Assembly: GCA_022822005.1 (NCBI GenBank) | Contig: JAJECO010000023.1 | Span: forward strand, 93,904 to 137,423 | Direction: 5' to 3' | DNA length: 43,520 nucleotides | Source: Candidatus Poribacteria bacterium | Lineage (GTDB): Bacteria; Poribacteria; WGA-4E; PCPOR2b | Shown: piece after piece, positions 1,989-42,362 of the stretch | How the letters are laid out: every line of letters starts with the position of its first letter | Position numbering within the stretch: the first letter of the stretch is position 1 | The notes under the pieces: model-generated | What the model saw: only the letters and a program-made list of their open reading frames with translations | Databases searched by the model: none | What the model was told of the DNA's origin: nothing | Translations under genes and position numbers: made by a program

Positions 1989-4448
<2,460 letters not shown>

Positions 4449-8889: not shown

Positions 8890-10683
8890 ATGAGAAAATG
8901 GCGAAATGGTGCGTTCATTGGTTCATTGTTTCATGAATTCATTCAGGGGGTGTGGAATGCACGGGCTGTTGCACGCTTCACGCTTCACGTTTTACCCATT
9001 GCGCTTTACCTTCTGCTGGGAGTGTCAACCGCGTACGATTGGATCGATGGCACTCCCTATTTTTATGAACACTTCGGTCCTGTCCTCAAAGATGTTGGTG
9101 AAGTGCCTTCTGCGCCTGCTCGACCAAATGCGCCTCAACCGGTGCTTGGAGACCGCAAGAACTTCTTTTCGGTCAATTTTAATACCCACGAACAATATAT
9201 TGTTCAAGCCACATTGCGGGCGATTGGGGAATTCTGTTACATCTTCGTTGAGGATTCGCAGTGGCTGCAGACGGTGAATGACGAAACGGTTCGCTCAGTG
9301 CGCCGTGCATTCGATGACGCAGTGCCCGCCGACTTGAACCGTGGAATCTACGAAATCGAAACAGAACTTTTCGGTGCACCGCCAGACATTGATGGCGATA
9401 AGCGAATCTATCTGCTTTTATTAGACATTCGCGATAAGGAGACGCGGGGCGGCAGTTTTGTCGCAGGTTTTTTTAGTCCAGTCAACCAGCACCGAGGTGT
9501 TCTCAGGCACCCAGATATAGGTATTCCGGTCCGTAGCAATGAACTCGAGATACTCTATCTGGATACCAACCCCCAGAACGCAGGGAGTGAGAACGCGTTC
9601 GGTGTACTCGCTCACGAATTTCAGCATCTCATCCACTGGCGGCATGACCCAAATGAAGCGATCTGGGTCAATGAAGGCTGCGCTGAATATGCTACATTCG
9701 TTTGCGGTTATCAAGTACGAAACCATGTCTCAGCATTTCAACAGAATCCACATGTTTCACTTGTGAATTGGCCCCAAGGAATGCAGAGCCAAGTTGCCCA
9801 CTATGGTGCGGTGTACTTGTGGATGCTTTATCTCCATGAACATTACGGTGGCGCACAGACGATCGCCACAATTGTGAAAAATCGAGAGAACGGAATCTCC
9901 GGCATTAATAGTGCTTTACACGCGCGTAGTGTGGAATCGACCTTCTCTGCTATCTATGCTGATTGGAAGGTCGCAAATTATCTTGATGATGGCAATTTTG
10001 CTGATGGGCGGTACGGTTATCAGAATGAACAATTAACGCTCCGATCTCGCCGTGAGCATCGTTCATATCCTGTTTCCGTTAAAAACAACGTACTTGCCAG
10101 CTATGCGTCGGACTATATTCCTTTTTATCCTAACGCAGGAAACGGTAGCCTGAGCCTTTCCTTTGAGGGTGATAATCATCACCCTTACGATGTCAAGGTT
10201 ATTGAGTTTCAAGGGGGACAACCGACGACAGTCTATGATATGTCGTTAACTGAGATTGGAAAAGGAAGTCTGCTTATCTTGGATTTTGGGAGGAGTGTTG
10301 AGAAAATCACGCTTATCCCAAGTGTGCAACCCAACAGCGAGTTACCGCCACCCACCGTATCATCTTACGCTTATAGCGCGGAGCAGATTGTCGAAAAGGT
10401 AGAATTTAATGCAACAGTCTTGCCCAATCCCGTTCACCCAAGGTACTGGGACATCATCGCCGTTCCAAATCACGCAATTGGTGCAAGTCCACCACACATC
10501 ACGATTGCGCAAGGTGTTGAATCCGTTATTTCAACAGATCCAATGAAGGTTGTGCAAGATGGAGCCATTTACACCTATTCGCTTTATCTTGCTCCGGAGA
10601 TCGCCCCCGAAAGCGTCCGGTGGGAGATTTTCTTTTTGGGTGAATCGGTTGGATCTGGTGAACTTGAAAAACATAATGAGTAG
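8890..10683 (+). CDS. Exported gluzincin-type zinc metallopeptidase (M30/M6-like)
   Basis: 597 residues. A hydrophobic segment near residues 33-50 (FTLHVLPIALYLLLGV) is a signal peptide or membrane anchor. The zinc-binding motif is HEFQH at residues 242-246, followed by WVNEGCAEYA with E262 as the probable third zinc ligand. The HEFQH-x15-E layout and the NEG-AEYA motif resemble hyicolysin-like (M30) and immune-inhibitor-A-like (M6) peptidases, and many uncharacterised exported peptidases. The C-terminal third has a beta-rich pattern without recognisable catalytic residues. An active extracytoplasmic peptidase is likely; the exact family is uncertain. Confidence 0.75.
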   Translation: MRKWRNGAFIGSLFHEFIQGVWNARAVARFTLHVLPIALYLLLGVSTAYDWIDGTPYFYEHFGPVLKDVGEVPSAPARPNAPQPVLGDRKNFFSVNFNTHEQYIVQATLRAIGEFCYIFVEDSQWLQTVNDETVRSVRRAFDDAVPADLNRGIYEIETELFGAPPDIDGDKRIYLLLLDIRDKETRGGSFVAGFFSPVNQHRGVLRHPDIGIPVRSNELEILYLDTNPQNAGSENAFGVLAHEFQHLIHWRHDPNEAIWVNEGCAEYATFVCGYQVRNHVSAFQQNPHVSLVNWPQGMQSQVAHYGAVYLWMLYLHEHYGGAQTIATIVKNRENGISGINSALHARSVESTFSAIYADWKVANYLDDGNFADGRYGYQNEQLTLRSRREHRSYPVSVKNNVLASYASDYIPFYPNAGNGSLSLSFEGDNHHPYDVKVIEFQGGQPTTVYDMSLTEIGKGSLLILDFGRSVEKITLIPSVQPNSELPPPTVSSYAYSAEQIVEKVEFNATVLPNPVHPRYWDIIAVPNHAIGASPPHITIAQGVESVISTDPMKVVQDGAIYTYSLYLAPEIAPESVRWEIFFLGESVGSGELEKHNE

Positions 10684-25887: not shown

Positions 25888-27036
25888 ATGGACACGATAC
25901 CCAATCGACAAACCACTCCCAAGCACGTTCTCATCAGCGTTGTCGGACTCTCACCGCAAGTAATCACAGAAACCCTCTACTACTATTGGCACCTTGCTTC
26001 ACCACCCGTCCCAATCACCGAAGTGTTTGCCTTGACTACCCTGCATGGCAAACAGGCTTTGGAAGATACACTTCTCGGAGATGATGGAAAGCTCAAGTCC
26101 CTTTGCAGCGACTACAATCTGCCACCAATCCACTTCGATCTGGCGAATATTCAGCTCCTCACGGGTGCAGATGGACAGCCATTAGACGACATTTCGAGTG
26201 TGATTGACAACGAAGCCCTCGCAGACCAACTCTTTGCATTCGTGCGAAGGTTGGCAACCTCAGCCGATATCTGTCTACACGCCTCTATCGCAGGCGGGCG
26301 AAAAACGATGGGGCTCTATATCGGCTTAGCGCTGCAATTTTACGGCAGACCGGGCGATACCCTTTCCCATGTCCTCGTGAACCCTGAACTTGAAAATCGG
26401 GAGTTTTTCTATCCACCGCCAAACGGTGCCGATGTCGTTTTGAGCGATGGACGTACAATTCCTGCCGATGAAATTCGACTTGAATTGGCAGAAATCCCGC
26501 TCTTGCTACTTGGGGAACAGATCCCTTTTCTCAAGGACCATACCGATGCTGGCTACACGGAGTTAATTGAGATCGCTCAACGAGAGTATAATGCGTTGCA
26601 AGCGATCTCCCCTATCGTTGTTAATACATTCTCCCGTTGTTTAGAAATTGGAGAGGTTACTATCACCTTCACACCCCTTGAACTTGGGCTCTATCTGTTT
26701 TTTGCACAGCGACATTTAGAGGGGGAAGGGAACGAAAGATACTCTATTTCACGCTCTGAAATTCAGGCGAGACTTCTAACAGATGCACTCAGAGATATCA
26801 TACCTCAAATTCCCGCGCGAGATTTCCGCCTAGAGGGGTTGAAAGGTTGGGAAAGTGATCCAATTGCCCGTTTCTCTCAAACCCGATCTAATATCAACAG
26901 AAAAATTAAAGACGCGCTGGATGAATCCCAGGCGACTCACTATCAAATTCAGTCTTGGGATCCTTTATCAAACCAAAACGATATCCATTACGGGTTGGCA
27001 CTTTCCAAAAACCGTATCCACCTCCGGCTACACTGA
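25888..27036 (+). CDS. CRISPR-associated ring-nuclease/CARF protein, NE0113 (TIGR02584) family
   Basis: 382 residues. The CARF-like N-terminus has HVLISVVGLSPQVITETLYY (from residue 13) and the second nucleotide-binding motif ASIAGGRKTMGLY near residues 131-143. Together these are the hallmark of the Cas_NE0113 family, often annotated as Csm6-type ring nuclease. The C-terminal part includes RSNINRKIKDAL, a helix conserved in that family. I see no HEPN RxxxxH motif, so it is probably not itself an RNase; members of this group are thought to bind or cleave cyclic oligoadenylate. It has a good GGGAG site and reads towards cas10, but 1.2 kb separates them. Family call good; ring-nuclease activity inferred. 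Confidence 0.82.
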   Translation: MDTIPNRQTTPKHVLISVVGLSPQVITETLYYYWHLASPPVPITEVFALTTLHGKQALEDTLLGDDGKLKSLCSDYNLPPIHFDLANIQLLTGADGQPLDDISSVIDNEALADQLFAFVRRLATSADICLHASIAGGRKTMGLYIGLALQFYGRPGDTLSHVLVNPELENREFFYPPPNGADVVLSDGRTIPADEIRLELAEIPLLLLGEQIPFLKDHTDAGYTELIEIAQREYNALQAISPIVVNTFSRCLEIGEVTITFTPLELGLYLFFAQRHLEGEGNERYSISRSEIQARLLTDALRDIIPQIPARDFRLEGLKGWESDPIARFSQTRSNINRKIKDALDESQATHYQIQSWDPLSNQNDIHYGLALSKNRIHLRLH

Positions 27037-34066: not shown

Positions 34067-34834
34067 ATGCGAATCAAAATTACGTGCGACATCGGCAGGG
34101 GCATCTGCCTGCCTATCAATTACAATCACTTTCTGACGGGCGTTATCTATCAACTTATCAAGGGGACTGATCCGGAATATGCGGATTTCCTGCACCAAGA
34201 CGGCTATGAACTAGAGAATCGGCGTTTCAAACTGTTTACCTTCTCCCAACTGATGGCAGCGCAAAGACAGATTCGGGGCGATCAGATACACTTTGGTTCG
34301 CCGCTGACATGGTTTGTCTCGTCATCTCAGAAACCGTTTCTGGAAAACTTTGCCGCCTCGCTGATGCGAGACGGCCTCCTACAGATTGAACGGCATCAAC
34401 TTCAGATACAGGATGTGGAGGTGTTGTCGCAGCCTCGCTTTCGACCAAAGATGAGTTTCCGATGCCTCTCACCAATTACCATGTCCACGATGCGTGAACG
34501 AGATGGTCAACTCAGCACACACTACTGCCTCCCCGATGACCCCCAGTTCTCCGAGTTAGTTCGGCAGAATCTAATTCGGAAATACGAAGCGGTGTACCGA
34601 CAACCGCCAACGGAGGAATCGTTTGCAATGATCTTCGATCAGACGTACATCGACAAAAGGAAGGGACGTGTGACCCGCCTAGTCGATTATAAAGGTGTCA
34701 AAATTCGCGGCGTCGTCGCTCCGTTTCACGTCATCGGTGCACCGGAATTAATCCATATCGGCTATGAATGTGGATTCGGCGATAAAAATAGCGCGGGATT
34801 TGGGATGGTGGAGGTTGCAAAGAAGCGGAGATAA
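34067..34834 (+). CDS. cas6: CRISPR repeat endoribonuclease Cas6
   Basis: 255 residues with a GTGGAGG site before the ATG. Cas6 cuts the array transcript within each repeat, usually leaving an 8-base 5' handle, here AUUGAAAC. The N-terminal LPINYNHFLTGVIYQLIKG contains H21, a candidate catalytic histidine of this family, and the C-terminal glycine-rich loop is GFGDKNSAGFGMVEV. It comes 113 bases after csm5 and is the last complete cas gene before the array. Confidence 0.95.
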   Translation: MRIKITCDIGRGICLPINYNHFLTGVIYQLIKGTDPEYADFLHQDGYELENRRFKLFTFSQLMAAQRQIRGDQIHFGSPLTWFVSSSQKPFLENFAASLMRDGLLQIERHQLQIQDVEVLSQPRFRPKMSFRCLSPITMSTMRERDGQLSTHYCLPDDPQFSELVRQNLIRKYEAVYRQPPTEESFAMIFDQTYIDKRKGRVTRLVDYKGVKIRGVVAPFHVIGAPELIHIGYECGFGDKNSAGFGMVEVAKKRR

Positions 34835-34893
34835 ATCTACTTGCCAAATTTATGCTCCTTCAAATTAAACTCATGTTAAGAAACCGGACGCCA

Positions 34894-34925
34894 GAAACCG
34901 AGTTTTTTCTTGAAAACTTGGTTTC
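34894..34925. repeat. 13-bp hairpin after cas6
   Basis: GAAACCGAGTTTT at 34894-34906 pairs with AAAACTTGGTTTC at 34913-34925 (one G-T pair). The left arm is identical to the hairpin at 32771. It follows cas6 and precedes the cas4 fragment, so it could reduce transcription into the array, or be a miniature mobile repeat. Confidence 0.8.
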
Positions 34926-34982
34926 TCTGCACACTTTCCTTTTATTTGAAACTCAAATCAAACCGGAGGAGAGGACACATTT

Positions 34983-35147
34983 ATGCAAACCGAAACCCGT
35001 ACCACCGGTCGCGTTACCGGCACAATGATCAGCTACCTCCACGTCTGCCCACGACAACTCTGGTTCTTTCAGAACCACATCGAAATGGAACACACCTCAG
35101 ACCGCGTCTCTATGGGGCGATTGCTACAGGAGGAGAGTTACTTTTAA
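34983..35147 (+). pseudogene. cas4: cas4, N-terminal fragment joined to the first CRISPR repeat
   Basis: ATG 34983 has a strong GGAGGAGAGG site and opens a 54-residue frame. It reads TGRVTGTMISYLHVCPRQLWFF and IEMEHTSDRVSMGRLLQEES, then YF and stop. This is the start of Cas4: the first iron-sulphur Cys in HVCPRQLW, and the EHTSD/V..GRLL..ESY segment. The frame ends because CRISPR repeat 1 begins at 35141, inside the Tyr codon. The rest of Cas4 (RecB-type nuclease motifs and the other three cysteines, usually about 120 more residues) is missing, so it cannot be functional. No cas1 or cas2 follow. Deletion by recombination into the array is the simplest explanation; an assembly join is the alternative. 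Confidence 0.85.
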
Positions 35148-36553
35148 TCGTACCATTGTGGAATTGAAACGCTGCTACGAGAGCCTTGTCGCTTTTATCA
35201 AGGATTCTTTTAATCGGACCAGTATGGAATTGAAACCCGAGCAAGTAAGCGGCGATTGAAGCGATTGCGAAGCCTTTTAATCGTACCATTGTGGAATTGA
35301 AACCCACGAGGGCAGATAGTTAGGGAAGGTTTTGAATTCTTTTAATCGAGCCATTGTGGAATTGAAACACGGGAACGTTAGTCCGAAGGTGGTAGCTGAC
35401 CTCCTTTTAATCGAACCATTATGGAATTGAAACGGTTCCGGAGTGACTACTGTGTTGTCGGTCGAACATCTTTTAATCGGACCATAGTGGAATTGAAACA
35501 AAACAAGGTGACGGATGCCACTGTTGTCTAGGTCGCTCTTTTAATCGGACCATTGTGGAATTGAAACTCTGCTAATCTTGCGAAGCGGGGATTTTCTCTC
35601 CACCCTTTTAATCGAACCGTTGTGGAATTGAAACATATCAAGTAAATCCTTGTGCGGCGCGAGGTGAACGCTTTTAATCGCCCCATTTTGGAATTGAAAC
35701 ATCTCAGGGGGACGCCTCCGAGGAGAATCCTCGCGCCTTTTAATCGGACCATAGTGGAATTGAAACAAGTAATGTTCAATCATTGGAACAACATATTCCA
35801 AACTTTTAATCGGACCATAGTGGAATTGAAACACAAAAGGCACGAAAGCATCAGGGGTTTTCTCACTTGCTTTTAATCGAACCATTGTGGAATTGAAACT
35901 TCTCATTGTCTGTTAAATTCGCACCCATCCGTTCCACTTTTAATCGGACCATAGTGGAATTGAGACCCTGCCGAAGACTTCGGTCCGTACGGGGAATTTC
36001 CCCTTTTAATCGGACCATTGTGGAATTGAAACGTGCAACCGGAAACGTCTAAATTCTGGCGAAGACCGACTTTTAATCGTACCATTGTGGAATTGGAACT
36101 GGTGACCGACACTGTCCGGATGCCGCGTTTTCCATATCCTTTTAATCGGACCATTGTGGAATTGAAACAGCGGATGCCATAGGTTTGGCAGGGTGTACGG
36201 AGTGTCTTTTAATCGGACCATTGTGGAATTGCAACGGTTTTTGAAATGTGTTGTTTAATACTGAGAATTTAGCTTTTAATCGCACCATTATGGAATTGAA
36301 ACGCTTGATCTTTCAGATTGATCAGCGAATGACCAACGCTTTTAATCGCCCCATTGTGGAATTGCAACGTCTCTAATTGGGTGCCAATCCCTATTCCACC
36401 AATCTTTTAATCGCCCCATTGTGGAATTGAAACGTGCCATGCCATTGATGCCTTGCTCAAAGAGTAAGTCTTTTAATTGACCCATAGTGGAATTGAAACC
36501 TTTTTTCGGTGATACCAATGGAGGTTCATCACCCGCTTTTAATCGAACCATTA
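35141..36553 (+). CRISPR. CRISPR array segment A, 22 repeats (last one truncated)
   Basis: Thirty-base repeats with 21 spacers of 35-39 bases. Layout: CTTTTAATCG at positions 1-10, two variable bases, CCA at 13-15, three variable bases, TGG at 19-21, and AATTGAAAC at 22-30. The ATTGAAAC end implies transcription to the right and an AUUGAAAC crRNA handle. Within this segment, positions 11-12 are TA, GA, AA, AG, CA, CC or AC, and 16-18 are TTG, TAG, TTA, GTA or TTT. Handle mutations occur in repeats at 35937, 36070, 36206 and 36339. The final copy (36536-36553) stops after position 18. No leader is present: repeat 1 is joined to the cas4 fragment. Confidence 0.97.
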
Positions 36554-36572
36554 TTGAAATGGAGGTCTTGCA

Positions 36573-36893
36573 ATGACGCAAAGCACTAATTGTGAAGGTG
36601 GTTCGCGCTGTACTTGTGAGCGTCCTCATGTCTGCTCAAAAGAAATAGCAATCATGGACCTCGAGGTAGTGACTCAAGAGGATTTAGACCGCTCCGAGGA
36701 GGCGGCGCGCTTATCGGAGCGCGAACATGGACTCAGATCCTTTGAGGCTTGTCGAGATCGCCGATTACACAAAATGTATTGGGTTCGCCAGTGTATTCTC
36801 GAGTGCAAATCCCAAGGGGAAGAGGTGCCATGGCCTGTGCTGGATTGGCTCTTTAATACCAGACCTCCTACACGTGAACAGTTCATGAAATAG
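36573..36893 (+). CDS. Unrecognised Cys-containing small protein encoded inside the CRISPR array
   Basis: 106 residues between array segments A and B. TGGAGG lies eight bases upstream of the ATG, directly after the truncated repeat. The N-terminal part has five Cys within 22 residues (NCEGGSRCTCERPHVC) suggestive of a metal site; then an acidic helix (EVVTQEDLDRSEEAARLSERE) and a basic/aromatic C-terminal part (CRDRRLHKMYWVRQCILECK, PWPVLDWLFNTRPP). No family is recognised. A short GGGC/GCCC stem and TTTTT follow the stop. The frame and site suggest a real gene. Its place could reflect a cargo gene, a CRISPR-associated accessory factor or an insertion, none of which can be chosen here. Confidence 0.6.
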   Translation: MTQSTNCEGGSRCTCERPHVCSKEIAIMDLEVVTQEDLDRSEEAARLSEREHGLRSFEACRDRRLHKMYWVRQCILECKSQGEEVPWPVLDWLFNTRPPTREQFMK

Positions 36894-36978
36894 GGCCGGT
36901 GCCCCGTTCCCTTTTTAGCACGTGCTTTCATCGGGAGCCTTGAAGTGGATTGCCGTATATCGCAGCGGATCTAGCCCA

Positions 36979-37074
36979 CTTTTAATCGAACCATTGTGGA
37001 ATTGAAACTTGAGGATATGGGCGAAGTCGTCGCAGTCTTGCCGTCTTTTAATCGAACCATTGTGGAATTGAGAC
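36979..37074 (+). CRISPR. CRISPR array segment B, two repeats and one spacer
   Basis: Repeat 36979-37008 is the form with AA at 11-12 and TTG at 16-18. Repeat 37045-37074 is the same but ends ATTGAGAC. One 36-base spacer (37009-37044) separates them. The unit is isolated between two protein genes. Confidence 0.95.
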
Positions 37075-37110
37075 TCCTCTAAAAATCTGATATTTTTTGT
37101 AATGTCAAAA

Positions 37111-37138
37111 TTGTGCATTGTTGAGATATGAGTATACT
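37111..37138 (+). promoter_or_regulatory. Possible promoter for the second array-embedded gene
   Basis: TTGTGC at 37111-37116 and TATACT at 37133-37138 are spaced by 16 bases, a partial sigma-70-type match. It would place the transcript start just before the GGAGG ribosome site of the 37161 gene, and it argues against the earlier ATG at 37128 as the start. Confidence 0.4.
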
Positions 37139-37160
37139 ATTCCCTTGGAGGTGGCTTTTA

Positions 37161-37643
37161 ATGGCTAATACCAACAGATCCACCATATACGATCTGACTA
37201 AGGCAGTAGAAAAGTGCAATTCGATTATGGCTTCTAATCTTCTGCATGAGGGGGTGGTTGAGGAGGGGGAAGATTTGCCGCAGCTTGACTCTTCCGTTCG
37301 TATTTCTATTGAAACAACTGTTGGTTGGATATATGAGAAAATGTGCCTGCTTCTTAAAATGGAGACAGCGAAGTGGGCGTATATTGAGTTGTTATCCCCT
37401 CTCAAAAATCTCTGGAAAGACATGCAAGAAGAGGAGAAATTACAACCTCGTTTTTCTAATCAACCGCACCATTTGTGGGATATCTCTTTTCAGGAGGCAA
37501 AGAAATTGCTTCCGGCGCTAAAGGATGAATATCCCCGGAAAAAGAATGGCGAGTACCTTGTTTTTCTGGGCACCTTATCGTCTCTATGTTTTCTGGGACT
37601 TATCTATGCTCTGAATGAAAAAAGCATAGAGGAACTGGCTTGA
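37161..37643 (+). CDS. Unrecognised small protein with C-terminal membrane segment, inside the CRISPR array
   Basis: 160 residues from ATG 37161, with TTGGAGG nine bases upstream; the frame also opens at 37128 but without a ribosome site. The N-terminal two thirds is helical and soluble-looking (TIYDLTKAVEKCNSIMASN, then TTVGWIYEKMCLLLKMETAK). A probable transmembrane helix follows near the end, YLVFLGTLSSLCFLGLIYAL, with a short NEKSIEELA tail. No known family is recognised. It has a possible promoter before it and a hairpin with T-run after it, so it looks like an independent unit. Codon use is more AT-rich than in neighbouring cas genes. Membrane accessory proteins are known in type III systems, but a link here is inference. 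Confidence 0.65.
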   Translation: MANTNRSTIYDLTKAVEKCNSIMASNLLHEGVVEEGEDLPQLDSSVRISIETTVGWIYEKMCLLLKMETAKWAYIELLSPLKNLWKDMQEEEKLQPRFSNQPHHLWDISFQEAKKLLPALKDEYPRKKNGEYLVFLGTLSSLCFLGLIYALNEKSIEELA

Positions 37644-37658
37644 TTTTGAGATTATTGA

Positions 37659-37693
37659 ACAAGGATAGGCATTAGTGCCTGTGCTTGTTTTTT
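37659..37693 (+). terminator. Intrinsic terminator after the membrane-segment protein gene
   Basis: ACAAGGATAGGCA (37659-37671) pairs with TGCCTGTGCTTGT (37676-37688) with one mismatch and one G-T, a TTAG loop, then a T-run to 37693. Confidence 0.8.
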
Positions 37694-37752
37694 ATTGCAT
37701 CCTACTCTATCTGTTTACTCCATCAAATCTCATATTTTTTCACAATGTCAAC

Positions 37753-38430
37753 CTTTTAATCGCCCCATTTTGGAATTGAAACACCGCCCCATAAACAACA
37801 GCTTTTTCCGAAGCATTCCTTTTAATCGGGCCATAGTGGAATTGAAACGCATTTTTTCCGCCGGCGATAAGACCGCTTGCCAATCTTTTAATCGCCCCAT
37901 TGTGGAATTAAAACCTCGGTGCCGCCGGAGCGGCGTGGTAGTGGTGCTCTTTTAATCGAACCAGTATGGAATTGAAACATTGCGAAGTGGTAAATCTCGC
38001 GGGGGTGAATCACGCTTTTAATCGAACCAGTATGGAATTGAAACGAAGCCTTGCGACTACCAACAATTGCAATGCCTTCTACTTTTAATCGCCCCATTGT
38101 GGCATTGAAACACCGCATGGCGGAGCTGCGGAAGATACTCAATGAATACTTTTAATCGCCCCATTTTGGAATTGAAACTGTTCAAGAACCCCAAAAATAT
38201 AAGTGCGAATTCCTCCTTCTAATCGCCCCATTTTGGAATTGAAACTCTTACCACTATCCGTCCTCAACTGTCAAAGAAACCTTTTAATCGAACCATTTTG
38301 GAATTGAAACTCTTACCACTATCCGTCCTCAACTGTCAAAGAAACCTTTTAATCGAACCATTGTGGAATTGAAACGTCTTATCGGCTACCCATTCGATAG
38401 TGTCTACCTCTGCTTTTAATCGAACCATAG
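37753..38430 (+). CRISPR. CRISPR array segment C, 11 repeats (last one truncated)
   Basis: Ten full repeats plus a truncated copy at 38413-38430, with ten spacers of 34-37 bases. Repeat forms are mixed as in segment A: CC with TTT or TTG, GG with TAG, AA with GTA, TTT or TTG. Single changes include ATTAAAAC (37885 copy), GGCATTG (38082 copy) and CTTCTAATCG (38216 copy). One spacer (TCTTACCACT...CAAAGAAAC) is present twice, at 38246-38280 and 38311-38345. The last repeat ends after position 18, as in segment A. An AT-rich stretch precedes the first repeat. Confidence 0.97.
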
Positions 38431-38468
38431 AGGTATCGGTATAATCGAGGCTAGGAAGCCCCTCCCAC

Positions 38469-38566
38469 GGTGCCCAATGGATCGGGCAACTACAATAAGG
38501 CCTAGTTTGTAGTAGGGTAATTTATCGCCCGTCCGGACGCGCAATGAATTGCGCTACTACGAACTG
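38469..38566. repeat. Nested palindromic repeats after array C
   Basis: GTAGTAG at 38509-38515 pairs with CTACTAC at 38554-38560 and encloses GCGCAAT-GA-ATTGCGC (38539-38554). Just before it, GCCCAATGGATCGGGC (38472-38487) and ACTACAA/TTGTAGT (38489-38495 / 38507-38513) form similar stems. The architecture matches the element at 33971. Confidence 0.65.
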
Positions 38567-38596
38567 AAGGGCGTGACTCCTATTGGAAACAAAAAA

Positions 38597-38633
38597 AGCC
38601 GATGGAACAAGAAAGTTCCACCGGCTCTTTTTA
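38597..38633. terminator. Bidirectional intrinsic terminator between array C and the Card1-like gene
   Basis: AGCCGATGGAAC (38597-38608) pairs with GTTCCACCGGCT (38615-38626) with one mismatch. A-run before it (38590-38597) and T-run after it mean it can stop transcripts from both sides: the rightward array and the leftward gene ending at 38827. Confidence 0.85.
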
Positions 38634-38826
38634 TTTATCGCTATAGAATTATTTTAGATAGACAATTTTCTCAGATGCTACGGATTTTTGTAGGCGTAAT
38701 CATGCCCCCCATAATGCCTAAGCGTCAATCCACCATCATCAACCGTACAACTGACGCGGATAGCTTGAGTAACCCGAAACGTATGGATACCTTTTTAGCG
38801 GTTCCTGATTGTGAAACGTAGTGTGT

Positions 38827-39918
38827 TCACTCCCAGTCGAAGGTAGTACGTATGTATTGATTAAACGTTTGCTGGAGACAATACCAAGTATCCTTTCCCC
38901 AAATTTCTAAGGGGAGGCTTGGATGCCCTGTCTCCTCCTTCAGTTCCGCTTGGATAAGTTGCTGGGCATTTCGCGAAGCACCGGAGAGTACAATGGACCG
39001 TGCTTCAACGCCACCGAGTTGCCTCATCCGTAAAATAGCCTCCATCCCTTTTCGTTTAACTATCTCATGTTTAGCAGAAACGGTGCACGAAACCACGACA
39101 ATTTGATATCCCAGTACCGCGACTACATCAAGTTGAAAAGGTTTAACACTTGCGTCTGTCGCATTGGCTCGCCGCACATATACCGAGTGAAAGAGTTTAT
39201 AATTTTTCCGATCTGGGCTCTGCCGATAAACATCCGCCAAGGCGTGTTGGAAGGCAGCATACGCACCGTACTCAAGAAGATGGGACTCAGATTCATCAAT
39301 AAATCTGCCGAGGGCGTTATAGCCATCGGTCATCTGTCCTTCAGTGAGGGTCCCAGGGGCGGGATTGTCACTCGTCTGATAGTTACCCGATTTATCCCAG
39401 TATTCATAAGGAAATGGACCGATTTCAAAGCCGTTGATTTCAGCAATGCGACGCAGACACGGCTCAATCCCCTTGCGAGTATCGGAGACTAAGGCATTGC
39501 CCTCCCGGTCTACGAGGGTCGCGCCTGAATCAGCACGTGGATCCAGATAGGAGGTCTCTAAGTCAATCGGTTCTGATAAAGCAACTGTTTCTGCAGCGGC
39601 AACGGTTTCAACACACATCACCTTGGTGCCGCCAGTATAGTGCACATGAATGCAAGTGATATTGTCTGGTAAATTCTCCTTGAGATTTCGTGTAATGTCG
39701 TTGCGTACGGTAGATGGGTTCCCCGACACCGTTTCAACAGCGTCAATAGCAAATATGTTGCGACTATATTTCAATAACCGGTCCCGTTCGGACCTAGTTT
39801 CCTCCGTATGTACAAGTCGTACATGAATCGGGTTTAGCAGCTTATCTTTCAAATGATGCAGTGCTACCCAGACGGGCAGTGGATTGGTGCCAACTGTAAG
39901 AATGAGAAGTGTTCCCAT
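38827..39918 (-). CDS. CARF plus PD-(D/E)xK protein, Card1/Can2-like, with altered active site
   Basis: 363 residues from ATG 39918 (a weak CGGAGA site upstream; the frame also opens at TTG 39948). The N-terminal CARF domain has LLILTVGTNPLPVWVAL and VHYTGGTKVMCVE, expected for cyclic-oligoadenylate binding. The C-terminal part looks like a PD-(D/E)xK nuclease of the DUF1887/Card1 group: Glu in HLLEYGAYAAFQ (about residue 216), LDVVAV with D264, then VVVSCTV. In active relatives the last motif is ExK or similar; here Ser277 and Thr279 take those places, so nuclease activity is doubtful unless another lysine from SAKHEIVKRKG serves. It is predicted to be a signal-activated effector or an inactive sink for the signal. 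Confidence 0.75.
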   Translation of the reverse strand: MGTLLILTVGTNPLPVWVALHHLKDKLLNPIHVRLVHTEETRSERDRLLKYSRNIFAIDAVETVSGNPSTVRNDITRNLKENLPDNITCIHVHYTGGTKVMCVETVAAAETVALSEPIDLETSYLDPRADSGATLVDREGNALVSDTRKGIEPCLRRIAEINGFEIGPFPYEYWDKSGNYQTSDNPAPGTLTEGQMTDGYNALGRFIDESESHLLEYGAYAAFQHALADVYRQSPDRKNYKLFHSVYVRRANATDASVKPFQLDVVAVLGYQIVVVSCTVSAKHEIVKRKGMEAILRMRQLGGVEARSIVLSGASRNAQQLIQAELKEETGHPSLPLEIWGKDTWYCLQQTFNQYIRTTFDWE

Positions 39919-40146
39919 TGCGGAAGTTTCTCCGTTTGTTACTGTCAAAATGATTACTGTTGATCTTGTATTGTCCCATCTTCAGGGATTCTTGGACGGT
40001 GTAGGTGAAGCAGAAACGAGCGAAGCGGAAGTTTTGGAACATGGTAGGGATTGGGTTCTTATTTTTTATCAACAAAACCTATGAAGCTTCAGCAAGTTCT
40101 TGAAAAATTGGCCTTTTTTGCAACAATAACCACATGAGTCTTTCAA
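39919..40146 (-). other. Gap between the two CARF genes
   Basis: 228 bases with no clear gene. Short open frames run in both directions, without ribosome sites. It probably carries the promoter or leader of the Card1-like gene. Confidence 0.4.
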
Positions 40147-41595
40147 TCAAAATGGAGTAATAAATTCATATTGCTTGTTGAAAGTAGACGCATTAATACA
40201 TGCAAGTTTTTGAGCTTTTTCAAATCGTTCTTCGACAGTCGCTTTAAACGCCTCGAATTTTTTATCATCAATCATGCTCATACCATGGGCGTAAACACTC
40301 TCATTTCGTGTCTCAATTTGGTTCCGAAATTTGCCCCAATCTAGGCTTTCAACAATATCATCAGCCAGGGCGTATAAAACGAAGAATCCGTCAATCAACC
40401 CAATTGGAGCAGGAAGAGTCGATCTGTCCATGTGTGTAAAGGCTGCCTTCCGCTTTTCCCCATACAGATCGAAAAGTTTCTTCTCGTTAAATTTAGAATA
40501 ATCAGGACTACGAGTATCGATTCCTTGCTGTGCAAGGCGGTGCTGTCCAATCCATTCCAGAAGCCGATACAGAATTAGACATGCTGTGTCAAATTTTCCC
40601 TGCGCTGCTCGACGGAGTGCCTTGTGATAAAGTGTATACGCAAAGTGAAAGCCATGAGGAGCGAGGAGTGCATATTGCGAATCTCTGACAATTTTCCGCA
40701 AACACCCCAACGCCTTCTTTTGTTCAACAAGACGGGGGAGAAAAGTACGGAGATGGCTTAACTCTTCTGGTAATGAAAATTGATTAAGGAGATCCAACAG
40801 CTGCTGCGAGAATTTTTGAGCTTTGCCAATGTTAAGATTATCCCACGCTTCGTAAGCTGTGCAGAGGTAACTGTATGCCTCATAAGTTTTAGCTTTGTTG
40901 GCATCACCTACCTGTCCTCTAAGCTGATCAAAAATACGTTGTGCACCAGCGTAATCATGTTCTGCGTAGAGAGATTTCGCTTTATCAGCCTCTATATCAC
41001 CAAACACGGTGTAAGGGTTATCCAAAAGATTCAAGTACTCACTGCCCGGTTCAGGCTTGTTGCCCAATTTCGGGTGGAATTGGGTATTGTCAATATAATA
41101 GATGTCAGCATTAAGCACAGTGCCTGCTAGTGTTGCGCCGCTAACCATCGACTTTTTGCCACCGGTGATATCCACAGCGATATTCGCAGGGCGGTTCCAA
41201 TCCTCGTAAAGTGCCATGATTGTTTTGTAGATCTCGGTAATGTCACTCCCGTCAATTTCGCGCGAATAAAGTTCAGAGATTCTCAAGCCAGTTTCCTCTT
41301 GGATTCGATCAAGTACCCCCTTTGTCCTTTGCGTATAAAGCAAACCGACTCGTTGCGGTTGTATGGTGCATATAGAAAGGATCAGCGGTTCAGGGGACGA
41401 GCCAACAGTCAAAATCAATCCGTCATATTGTCTCCCCTCTGGTGGGCGGTTTTCCGGTTTAGCGAGGAACACCTCTTTGATAAGCGGAAAAATCTGCTTG
41501 TCGTAAAAATTGCTCGCTGCTGCTCGCTTTTTGTCGTCGGAGCGATCCATATTCTTCCATCTTTTGATGAGATTATCAAATTCAGATTGGCACAT
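40147..41595 (-). CDS. CARF-HEPN ribonuclease, TIGR02710/Csm6-like
   Basis: 482 residues with AAGGAG before the ATG. The CARF part has LILTVGSSPEPLILSI (Gly65 region) and VDITGGKKSMVSGATL (GGKKSM 145-150), typical of the TIGR02710 family. The middle is helical. The C-terminal HEPN domain has RNESVYAHG with R430, N431 and H437, the RNase catalytic signature. Csm6/Csx1-type proteins degrade RNA non-specifically when CARF binds cyclic oligoadenylate. All key residues seem intact. It is leftward, 47 bases downstream of the next gene to its right, and likely shares its promoter. Confidence 0.88.
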   Translation of the reverse strand: MCQSEFDNLIKRWKNMDRSDDKKRAAASNFYDKQIFPLIKEVFLAKPENRPPEGRQYDGLILTVGSSPEPLILSICTIQPQRVGLLYTQRTKGVLDRIQEETGLRISELYSREIDGSDITEIYKTIMALYEDWNRPANIAVDITGGKKSMVSGATLAGTVLNADIYYIDNTQFHPKLGNKPEPGSEYLNLLDNPYTVFGDIEADKAKSLYAEHDYAGAQRIFDQLRGQVGDANKAKTYEAYSYLCTAYEAWDNLNIGKAQKFSQQLLDLLNQFSLPEELSHLRTFLPRLVEQKKALGCLRKIVRDSQYALLAPHGFHFAYTLYHKALRRAAQGKFDTACLILYRLLEWIGQHRLAQQGIDTRSPDYSKFNEKKLFDLYGEKRKAAFTHMDRSTLPAPIGLIDGFFVLYALADDIVESLDWGKFRNQIETRNESVYAHGMSMIDDKKFEAFKATVEERFEKAQKLACINASTFNKQYEFITPF

Positions 41596-41642
41596 TATGT
41601 TTTTTCTCCTTCTTATACCCTCTCCAAATTCAAGCGTACCAT

Positions 41643-42362
41643 CTAAGGAATGACTTGGGTCACCTGTCCACTTTCATTGACTGCTTGCACTCTTAGCTTA
41701 GCCTGTGCTCCAACCAATCCTGGATAATAAGGACGCTCAAAGACAACTTCTTCTGTGTAACTGGTCTGCAACTGTACCATTACCTTCATCCCATCCTTCT
41801 TCAGAATCGTCGCGTTCACGCGGTCACCAACTTTGAATCTCGGCTTCTCGGGTTGCGGGGGAGGTTTGGGAATCTGCGTTGGTTGCGATTTCGGCGTTGA
41901 TCTCGGTGCACGTTGTTCCTCGGTGGCACGCTTTGGCTCAACACGATAATAGCACATCAACCGCAGAATTGCTGTCAAAGCGGATAGGCGGAGTTGATTC
42001 AACGTTTTGATCTCGGACCGGAAACCGTTATCGTAGCCAAGACAGAACGCAATTGCCGAAGCGGTCAGCGCATGGTCAGCAACCGTTGCCCCCGGGAGTG
42101 AACGGCACGGCAACCATCGGAATGGAAGCTGATCTCTCTTTCCTTTCCACAAAGTCGAAAGGGGCGGAAGGAGTAGGTTGATTATGCAAGAGACACGTCC
42201 CGTGATGTCTTGTTCAGGCAAACTGCGAACATGCTCGGCAGTCTGCTTGACCACAGTGCTCCAATCCTCCTGCGTGATACCAAATCCATCTTTGAGAATT
42301 AGATCTTCCCAGCAATAATGGGCATTCTTGGTCGGTTCACCTGTTTTCCAGTCTCGTGTCAT
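41643..42362 (-). CDS. Unrecognised CRISPR-locus protein with C-terminal S1/OB-like domain
   Basis: 239 residues; first gene of the leftward unit, with a weak AGGA site eight bases before the ATG. The C-terminus (about residues 175-239) reads KPRFKVGDRVNATILK, then MKVMVQLQTSYTEEVVF and VGAQAKLRVQAVNES, an S1/TRAM-like OB-fold that would bind RNA. A Pro-rich linker (PKSQPTQIPKPPPQPEKP) joins it to a helical N-terminus including VADHALTASAIAFCLGYD and LRLSALTAILRLMCYY, which resembles the HD-domain region of Cas10-type proteins but lacks the HD pair. I know no characterised family with this fusion. Position next to a CARF-HEPN gene suggests an accessory role in the type III system; this is inference. 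Confidence 0.65.
   Translation of the reverse strand: MTRDWKTGEPTKNAHYCWEDLILKDGFGITQEDWSTVVKQTAEHVRSLPEQDITGRVSCIINLLLPPLSTLWKGKRDQLPFRWLPCRSLPGATVADHALTASAIAFCLGYDNGFRSEIKTLNQLRLSALTAILRLMCYYRVEPKRATEEQRAPRSTPKSQPTQIPKPPPQPEKPRFKVGDRVNATILKKDGMKVMVQLQTSYTEEVVFERPYYPGLVGAQAKLRVQAVNESGQVTQVIP

What the first reader, a model, noticed from the sequence alone, without database searches (positions are those of the whole stretch)
36554..36978. Cys-rich small gene inside the CRISPR array
Between truncated repeat 36536-36553 and segment B lies a 106-residue ORF with a TGGAGG site. It matches no family I know. Its ribosome site lies right after the broken repeat, so the gene and the array end were formed together. 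A protein gene within an array could be a guard, a toxin or antitoxin regulated by neighbouring crRNA, an anti-CRISPR, or a captured fragment.
Basis: partly seen in the sequence, partly recalled or inferred. Interest (0 to 1): 0.72.

Follow-up and report, generated by a model that had tools for sequence, protein, structure and literature searches.

The report
Small orphan gene between CRISPR repeats
A small protein gene sits where a spacer should be inside a bacterial CRISPR array; a near-copy sits beside CRISPR repeats in a related species, and similar array-embedded genes turn up in other genomes of the phylum, so some CRISPR arrays may carry whole genes as well as phage memories.

Summary
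The ORF is real: 106 codons (36573-36893, +), 7 Cys, GGAGG seven bases before ATG, directly after a degenerate CRISPR repeat in an aged type III-A array. Its only relative in 84 genomes of the phylum is in a congener, G019, again directly after a degenerate repeat, in a locus that lost csm and part of cas6. The two copies differ at 2 of 44 four-fold sites, against 421 of 1099 in seven nearby genes (Fisher 5.5e-7), so the repeat+gene block moved or recombined between species after they split. No family, phage, plasmid or fold match was found. It is not isolated: 69 repeat chains in cas1 neighbourhoods and related loci hold 20 gaps of at least 150 nt; ATG+SD ORFs in them are 11 sense, 0 antisense; one other orphan family was found at 4 loci, all beside repeats. 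Best reading: a repeat-anchored gene insert of CRISPR arrays, spread by recombination between arrays, probably translated from array read-through. Coding selection, expression and biochemical role are unproven. Guard, toxin and anti-CRISPR readings have no support here.

The parts
36536..36560 (+). Degenerate CRISPR repeat (5-nt internal deletion), left border of the insert, keeps the handle as ATTGAAAT
   Evidence: Sequence; alignment with the G019 copy
36561..36565 (+). Shine-Dalgarno GGAGG, 7 nt before ATG
   Evidence: Sequence
36573..36893 (+). ORF1, 106 aa, Cys-rich N-terminus, orphan
   Evidence: no family match
36894..36918 (+). Tail shared with G019; homology ends here
   Evidence: Alignment
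36979..37008 (+). Intact repeat, right border of the gap
37161..37643 (+). ORF2, 160 aa, second gene in the same array, host-like codon usage, flanked by 27-nt imperfect direct repeats
   Evidence: no relative in the other 83 phylum genomes
35141..38375 (+). Array 1, 33 recognisable repeats
34983..35140 (+). Cas4 N-terminal fragment ending where array 1 begins; no leader left before array 1
   Evidence: PF01930 6e-13; homology to G022 and G020 ends at 35141
34067..34834 (+). cas6
   Evidence: PF01881 2.8e-33

Best explanation
ORF1 is a small orphan gene carried as a gene-sized insert in the position of a spacer, with a degenerate CRISPR repeat as its left border. The repeat+gene block spread between two species recently, most likely by homologous recombination between repeat arrays, and is one case of a recurrent state in this phylum in which arrays hold co-directional genes. 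It has its own Shine-Dalgarno; no promoter was looked for or identified. Shown: position, relative, recent movement, strand bias of such inserts. Inferred: that it is translated, from read-through of the cas operon and array transcript; that the route was recombination; that it brings a benefit. Loss of the CCA/TGG stem in the repeat before ORF1 in both species may spare the message from Cas6 (guess). For the protein I guess a small helical protein with a metal-binding Cys cluster; its biochemical role is open.
For: Same repeat-gene junction in G000 and G019 with different neighbouring spacers. Four-fold sites 2 of 44 against 421 of 1099 in seven flanking genes; dS 0.078 against 0.65-0.99 for six left-flank genes and 0.74-0.89 for cas6 pieces. 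ATG+SD ORF of this length in 3 of 5000 shuffles. All 7 Cys kept in G019. Pattern: 20 gaps of 150 nt or more in 14 of 69 chains, ATG+SD ORFs 11 sense, 0 antisense, against 9:9 among chains just beyond the last repeat (Fisher 0.005-0.012). The A2 family lies beside repeats at 4 of 4 loci. The G052 insert is chromosomal-type DNA ending exactly at a repeat.
Against: Only two copies of ORF1 are known, so purifying selection is not shown (N/S P = 0.12, 3rd-position P = 0.10); 13 random substitutions leave the frame open in 50% of trials. Codon usage is not host-like. At least 7 of 20 gaps hold no convincing gene. Most gaps lie at trailer ends (15 of 20), where debris is expected; ORF1 does not. No expression data.
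Confidence: 0.5

Rival explanations
1. Passive debris: the old part of an array collects insertions and rearrangements; ORF1 is a fragment of foreign DNA with no role, kept by chance.
For: Degenerate repeats around it; low host codon score; dN/dS not distinguishable from neutral; gaps without genes occur too.
Against: Intact frame and SD in both species; strand bias of inserts; two orphan families found only beside repeats.
Confidence: 0.3
2. Oversize spacer: Cas1-Cas2 integrated a long DNA fragment between duplicated repeats, giving sharp borders.
For: Left border at the repeat edge in ORF1 and G052; the right border in G052 is exact.
Against: Repeats on the two sides of the G052 insert have different consensus; in G000 the right border cannot be checked; G000 has no cas1 above threshold now. 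Spacer length is normally set by a ruler (recalled).
Confidence: 0.12
3. Guard or toxin of CreTA type, repressed by a crRNA-like RNA from the degenerate repeats.
For: Degenerate repeat beside a small orphan gene.
Against: No spacer of 36 fits the ORF1 block above shuffles (best 0.56; null 5% 0.56); no type I effector genes in the window, where G022 has extra genes between cas6 and cas4.
Confidence: 0.05
4. Anti-CRISPR or other phage gene captured whole.
For: Small orphan, codon usage unlike the host's.
Against: No match in 50,697 phage records and none in IMG/VR scans; one 36-residue plasmid hit at E 9; best PHROG E 0.055.
Confidence: 0.03

Closest known systems
CreTA (CRISPR-regulated toxin-antitoxin; PMC9458426, abstract and outline read)
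   Same: Degenerate repeat directly beside a small gene
   Different: No spacer-like guide matching the gene was found; insert lies inside a long array; no type I effector seen in the window
MITE inserted in a CRISPR spacer of Haloquadratum (PMC3119063, passages read)
   Same: Foreign DNA inside an array next to a decayed locus
   Different: Here a gene with its own SD, shared by two species at the same repeat edge
Trailer-end decay and repeat-repeat recombination of arrays (PMC8047081, passages read)
   Same: Old repeats decay; recombination between repeats rearranges arrays
   Different: Genes lie between the decayed repeats, those with ATG+SD all on the array's sense strand
Integron gene cassettes (recalled)
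   Same: Works like: promoterless-looking genes bordered by a short repeated element, same direction
   Different: No integrase or attC was sought or seen; border is a CRISPR repeat

Membership tests
CreTA | Degenerate repeat(s) beside the toxin gene | tested here: met
CreTA | Guide with partial match to the toxin gene region | tested here: not met
   Whole-spacer fit of 36 spacers to the block is no better than shuffles; short seeds could be missed
CreTA | Type I effector (Cascade) to repress with | tested here: inconclusive
   Window holds type III-A genes and cas6 only; whole genome not searched for Cascade
CreTA | Toxicity of the gene product | not testable with these tools
   Needs expression
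Ordinary CRISPR spacer | Length like its neighbours (35-38 nt) | tested here: not met
   418-nt insert between handle and next repeat
Anti-CRISPR / phage protein | Relative in phages, prophages or plasmids | tested here: not met
Known Cas or defence protein | Profile match | tested here: not met
   Pfam, NCBIfam, PADLOC: none above noise
Integron cassette | attC site and integron integrase | not tested
   Not searched

The most novel reading that the evidence does not exclude
In this phylum CRISPR arrays double as integron-like gene platforms: genes with their own SD are loaded or exchanged at repeats, read from the array transcript, and some families (ORF1, the A2 family) live only beside CRISPR repeats and move between species with them.
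Probability: 0.2. Interest if true: 0.87.

Novelty: new variant of a known kind. Interest (0 to 1): 0.6.

Why it matters
If arrays can carry and exchange working genes, CRISPR repeats become a recombination platform for gene exchange, and array finders that split arrays at gaps would hide it. It also gives a defined set of orphan genes tied to CRISPR repeats whose role in immunity can be tested. Searches of the open literature listed no paper whose title or abstract start was about genes embedded in arrays; only listings were seen, and most subscription papers are not in that library.

Tried and rejected
Serratia hit L003 (24 residues) rejected: it lies in a frame antisense to a 706-aa ORF. 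The IMG/VR hit for ORF3 (14 residues) was judged chance from its length. Structure: ORF1 model pLDDT 58.9; Foldseek PDB and BFVD gave nothing with E <= 0.001. ORF2 model pLDDT 45.9, not searched. Rfam (34800-38700): repeats match CRISPR-DR2, two weak hits lie at 38584-38673, none on ORF1. Spacers against the held loci: 146 spacers from eight sources gave no match in ORF1 or ORF2. Relatives: ORF2 none in the other 83 phylum genomes or one IMG/VR scan; ORF3 none in the other 83 genomes. PMC6452263 was opened for 'between repeats' and held nothing on genes in arrays (passages).

Limits and dropped rows: one search leaves out L183 (overlaps L073), which still counted; L072 and L180 overlap by 501 nt. 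The survey covers the neighbourhoods (at most about 10 kb each side, less at contig ends) of 97 cas1 places plus loci reached otherwise, not all arrays of the phylum. Chains needed at least 4 repeats. Repeat consensi without GAAAC near the 3' end were left out (listed), one re-added by hand. Two of the 11 sense ORFs are weak witnesses: one is nested in ORF1, one is Cas2; without them 9:0. The strand control 9:9 is my count of chains from the listing; one search used 10:9 by miscount, corrected.

Full report
What is there. The window is the 3' end of contig C77 of a 6.0 Mb draft genome. The lineage is not named; it reminds me of Poribacteria, which is recall and untested. A type III-A operon (HD-Cas10/Csm1, Csm2, Csm3, Csm4, a further RAMP protein, then Cas6) runs into a Cas4 fragment whose homology ends at the first repeat, then array 1 (33 recognisable repeats). 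Two genes sit in the array on its sense strand: ORF1 (106 aa) and ORF2 (160 aa from its SD-bearing start). G000 has no cas1 above threshold.

ORF1 itself. GGAGG lies at 36561, directly after the repeat's handle ATTGAAAT, and ATG at 36573. An ATG ORF this long with an SD arose in 3 of 5000 shuffles. It is the longest open frame of the block in both genomes. All 7 Cys are kept in G019; 8 of 13 changes alter the protein. Against coding: the host codon score is low and the N/S ratio is not significant (P = 0.12). I treat it as a probable foreign gene, not a proven one.

Relative. Of 84 genomes only G000 and G019 hold it. In G019 the csm genes are gone, cas6 has an internal deletion, and two recognisable repeats precede a degenerate repeat that abuts ORF1. 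The neighbouring spacers differ between the species. The shared block begins in the repeat and ends about 25 nt after the stop.

Recent movement. Six left-flank genes have dS 0.65-0.99 and cas6 pieces 0.74-0.89; ORF1 has 0.078. Four-fold sites: 2 of 44 against 421 of 1099, Fisher 5.5e-7. Selection on the protein would not hold silent sites, so the block most likely moved, or was converted, after the species parted. Recombination between repeat arrays is the simplest route because the block's left edge is a repeat; this step is inferred.

A wider pattern. In the neighbourhoods of the 97 cas1 places of 55 genomes, plus loci reached otherwise, I found 69 chains with 2626 repeats: 2524 normal spacers, 13 gaps of 61-149 nt and 20 of 150 nt or more, the last in 14 chains (a reversed-sequence control gave 1 single match). 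The gaps hold ORF1, ORF2, ORF3 in G020, a metallopeptidase-dockerin gene in G052 whose SD follows an intact repeat directly, an ankyrin-like gene in G041 and a lipoprotein-like ORF in G046 (both named by eye), the A2 family in G081 and G032, Cas2 in G068 (by eye and by its matches), a seemingly frameshifted gene in a second G052 array, and others; at least 7 of 20 hold no convincing gene. ATG+SD ORFs were 11 sense and 0 antisense; one is nested in ORF1 and one is Cas2. Just beyond the last repeat, among 41 chains with enough sequence, 9 had such an ORF in sense and 9 in antisense (Fisher 0.005-0.012 by choice of rows). Most gaps lie at trailer ends (15 of 20 with at most 3 repeats after them); ORF1 and ORF2 do not.

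Repeat-bound families. A profile from the two A2 members found 5 matches at 4 loci in 3 of 84 genomes; two of these loci are the sequences it was built from. All four lie beside CRISPR repeats, including a repeat-flanked frameshifted copy at G032:C27 where no array was found in the fetched stretch. Start codons lie about 38-42 nt after the repeat at three loci and about 500 nt after it at G032:C144, where a partial repeat supplies the stop codon. ORF1 is beside a repeat at 2 of 2 loci.

Source of an insert. The G052 insert matches an array-free locus in G051 at 90% over 1027 nt; homology stops exactly at the next repeat and cuts a second gene. So chromosomal-type DNA was taken into an array with a sharp border.

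Mechanism. Best supported: a repeat-anchored gene insert exchanged between arrays. Likely but inferred: translation from read-through of the cas operon and array, since both inserts lie on that strand and no leader remains before array 1. In both species the CCA/TGG stem of the repeat before ORF1 is lost (a 5-nt deletion in G000, two substitutions in G019), which may spare the message from Cas6; this is a guess. A passive-debris reading stays open at about 0.3.

Novelty. Insertions into arrays are known (PMC3119063, passages) and so are degenerate ectopic repeats that control toxins (PMC9458426, abstract and outline). Co-directional genes embedded in arrays, with families found only beside repeats, I did not find in print (listings only).

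Noticed in passing
35141-38375: In the 33 repeats of array 1 nearly all variation falls at positions 11, 12 and 16-18; both ends are almost fixed.
   Followed up: partly
37083-37109 and 37725-37751: ORF2 is flanked by imperfect 27-nt direct repeats lying next to the two CRISPR repeats; 0 of 2000 shuffles reach the score.
   Followed up: partly
38681-38797 (-): C-terminal fragment of a CARF gene that ends arrays in G020 and G022; a full copy lies on G000:C22 beside a lone repeat.
   Followed up: partly
38827-42362 (-) and 25888-27036 (+): Several CARF effectors: CARF-PDDEXK/Csx1-like, CARF-HEPN, a weak Csx21 match and a further CARF protein.
   Followed up: no
L036 (G018), minus strand, near 9600-9800 and 2960-3220: Degenerate repeats stand directly upstream of csm1 and of cas6 in G018.
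   Followed up: no
L040 (G021) near 2504-2532; L041 (G020) near 2122-2150 (-): Single, near-perfect or perfect repeats away from any array, between genes.
   Followed up: no
L053 1255-1261 and L173 near 11970: The stop codons of ORF3 (G020) and of one A2 gene (G032) lie inside a CRISPR repeat.
   Followed up: partly
43130 and 43398; 38246 and 38311: Duplicated spacers within array 2 and within array 1.
   Followed up: no
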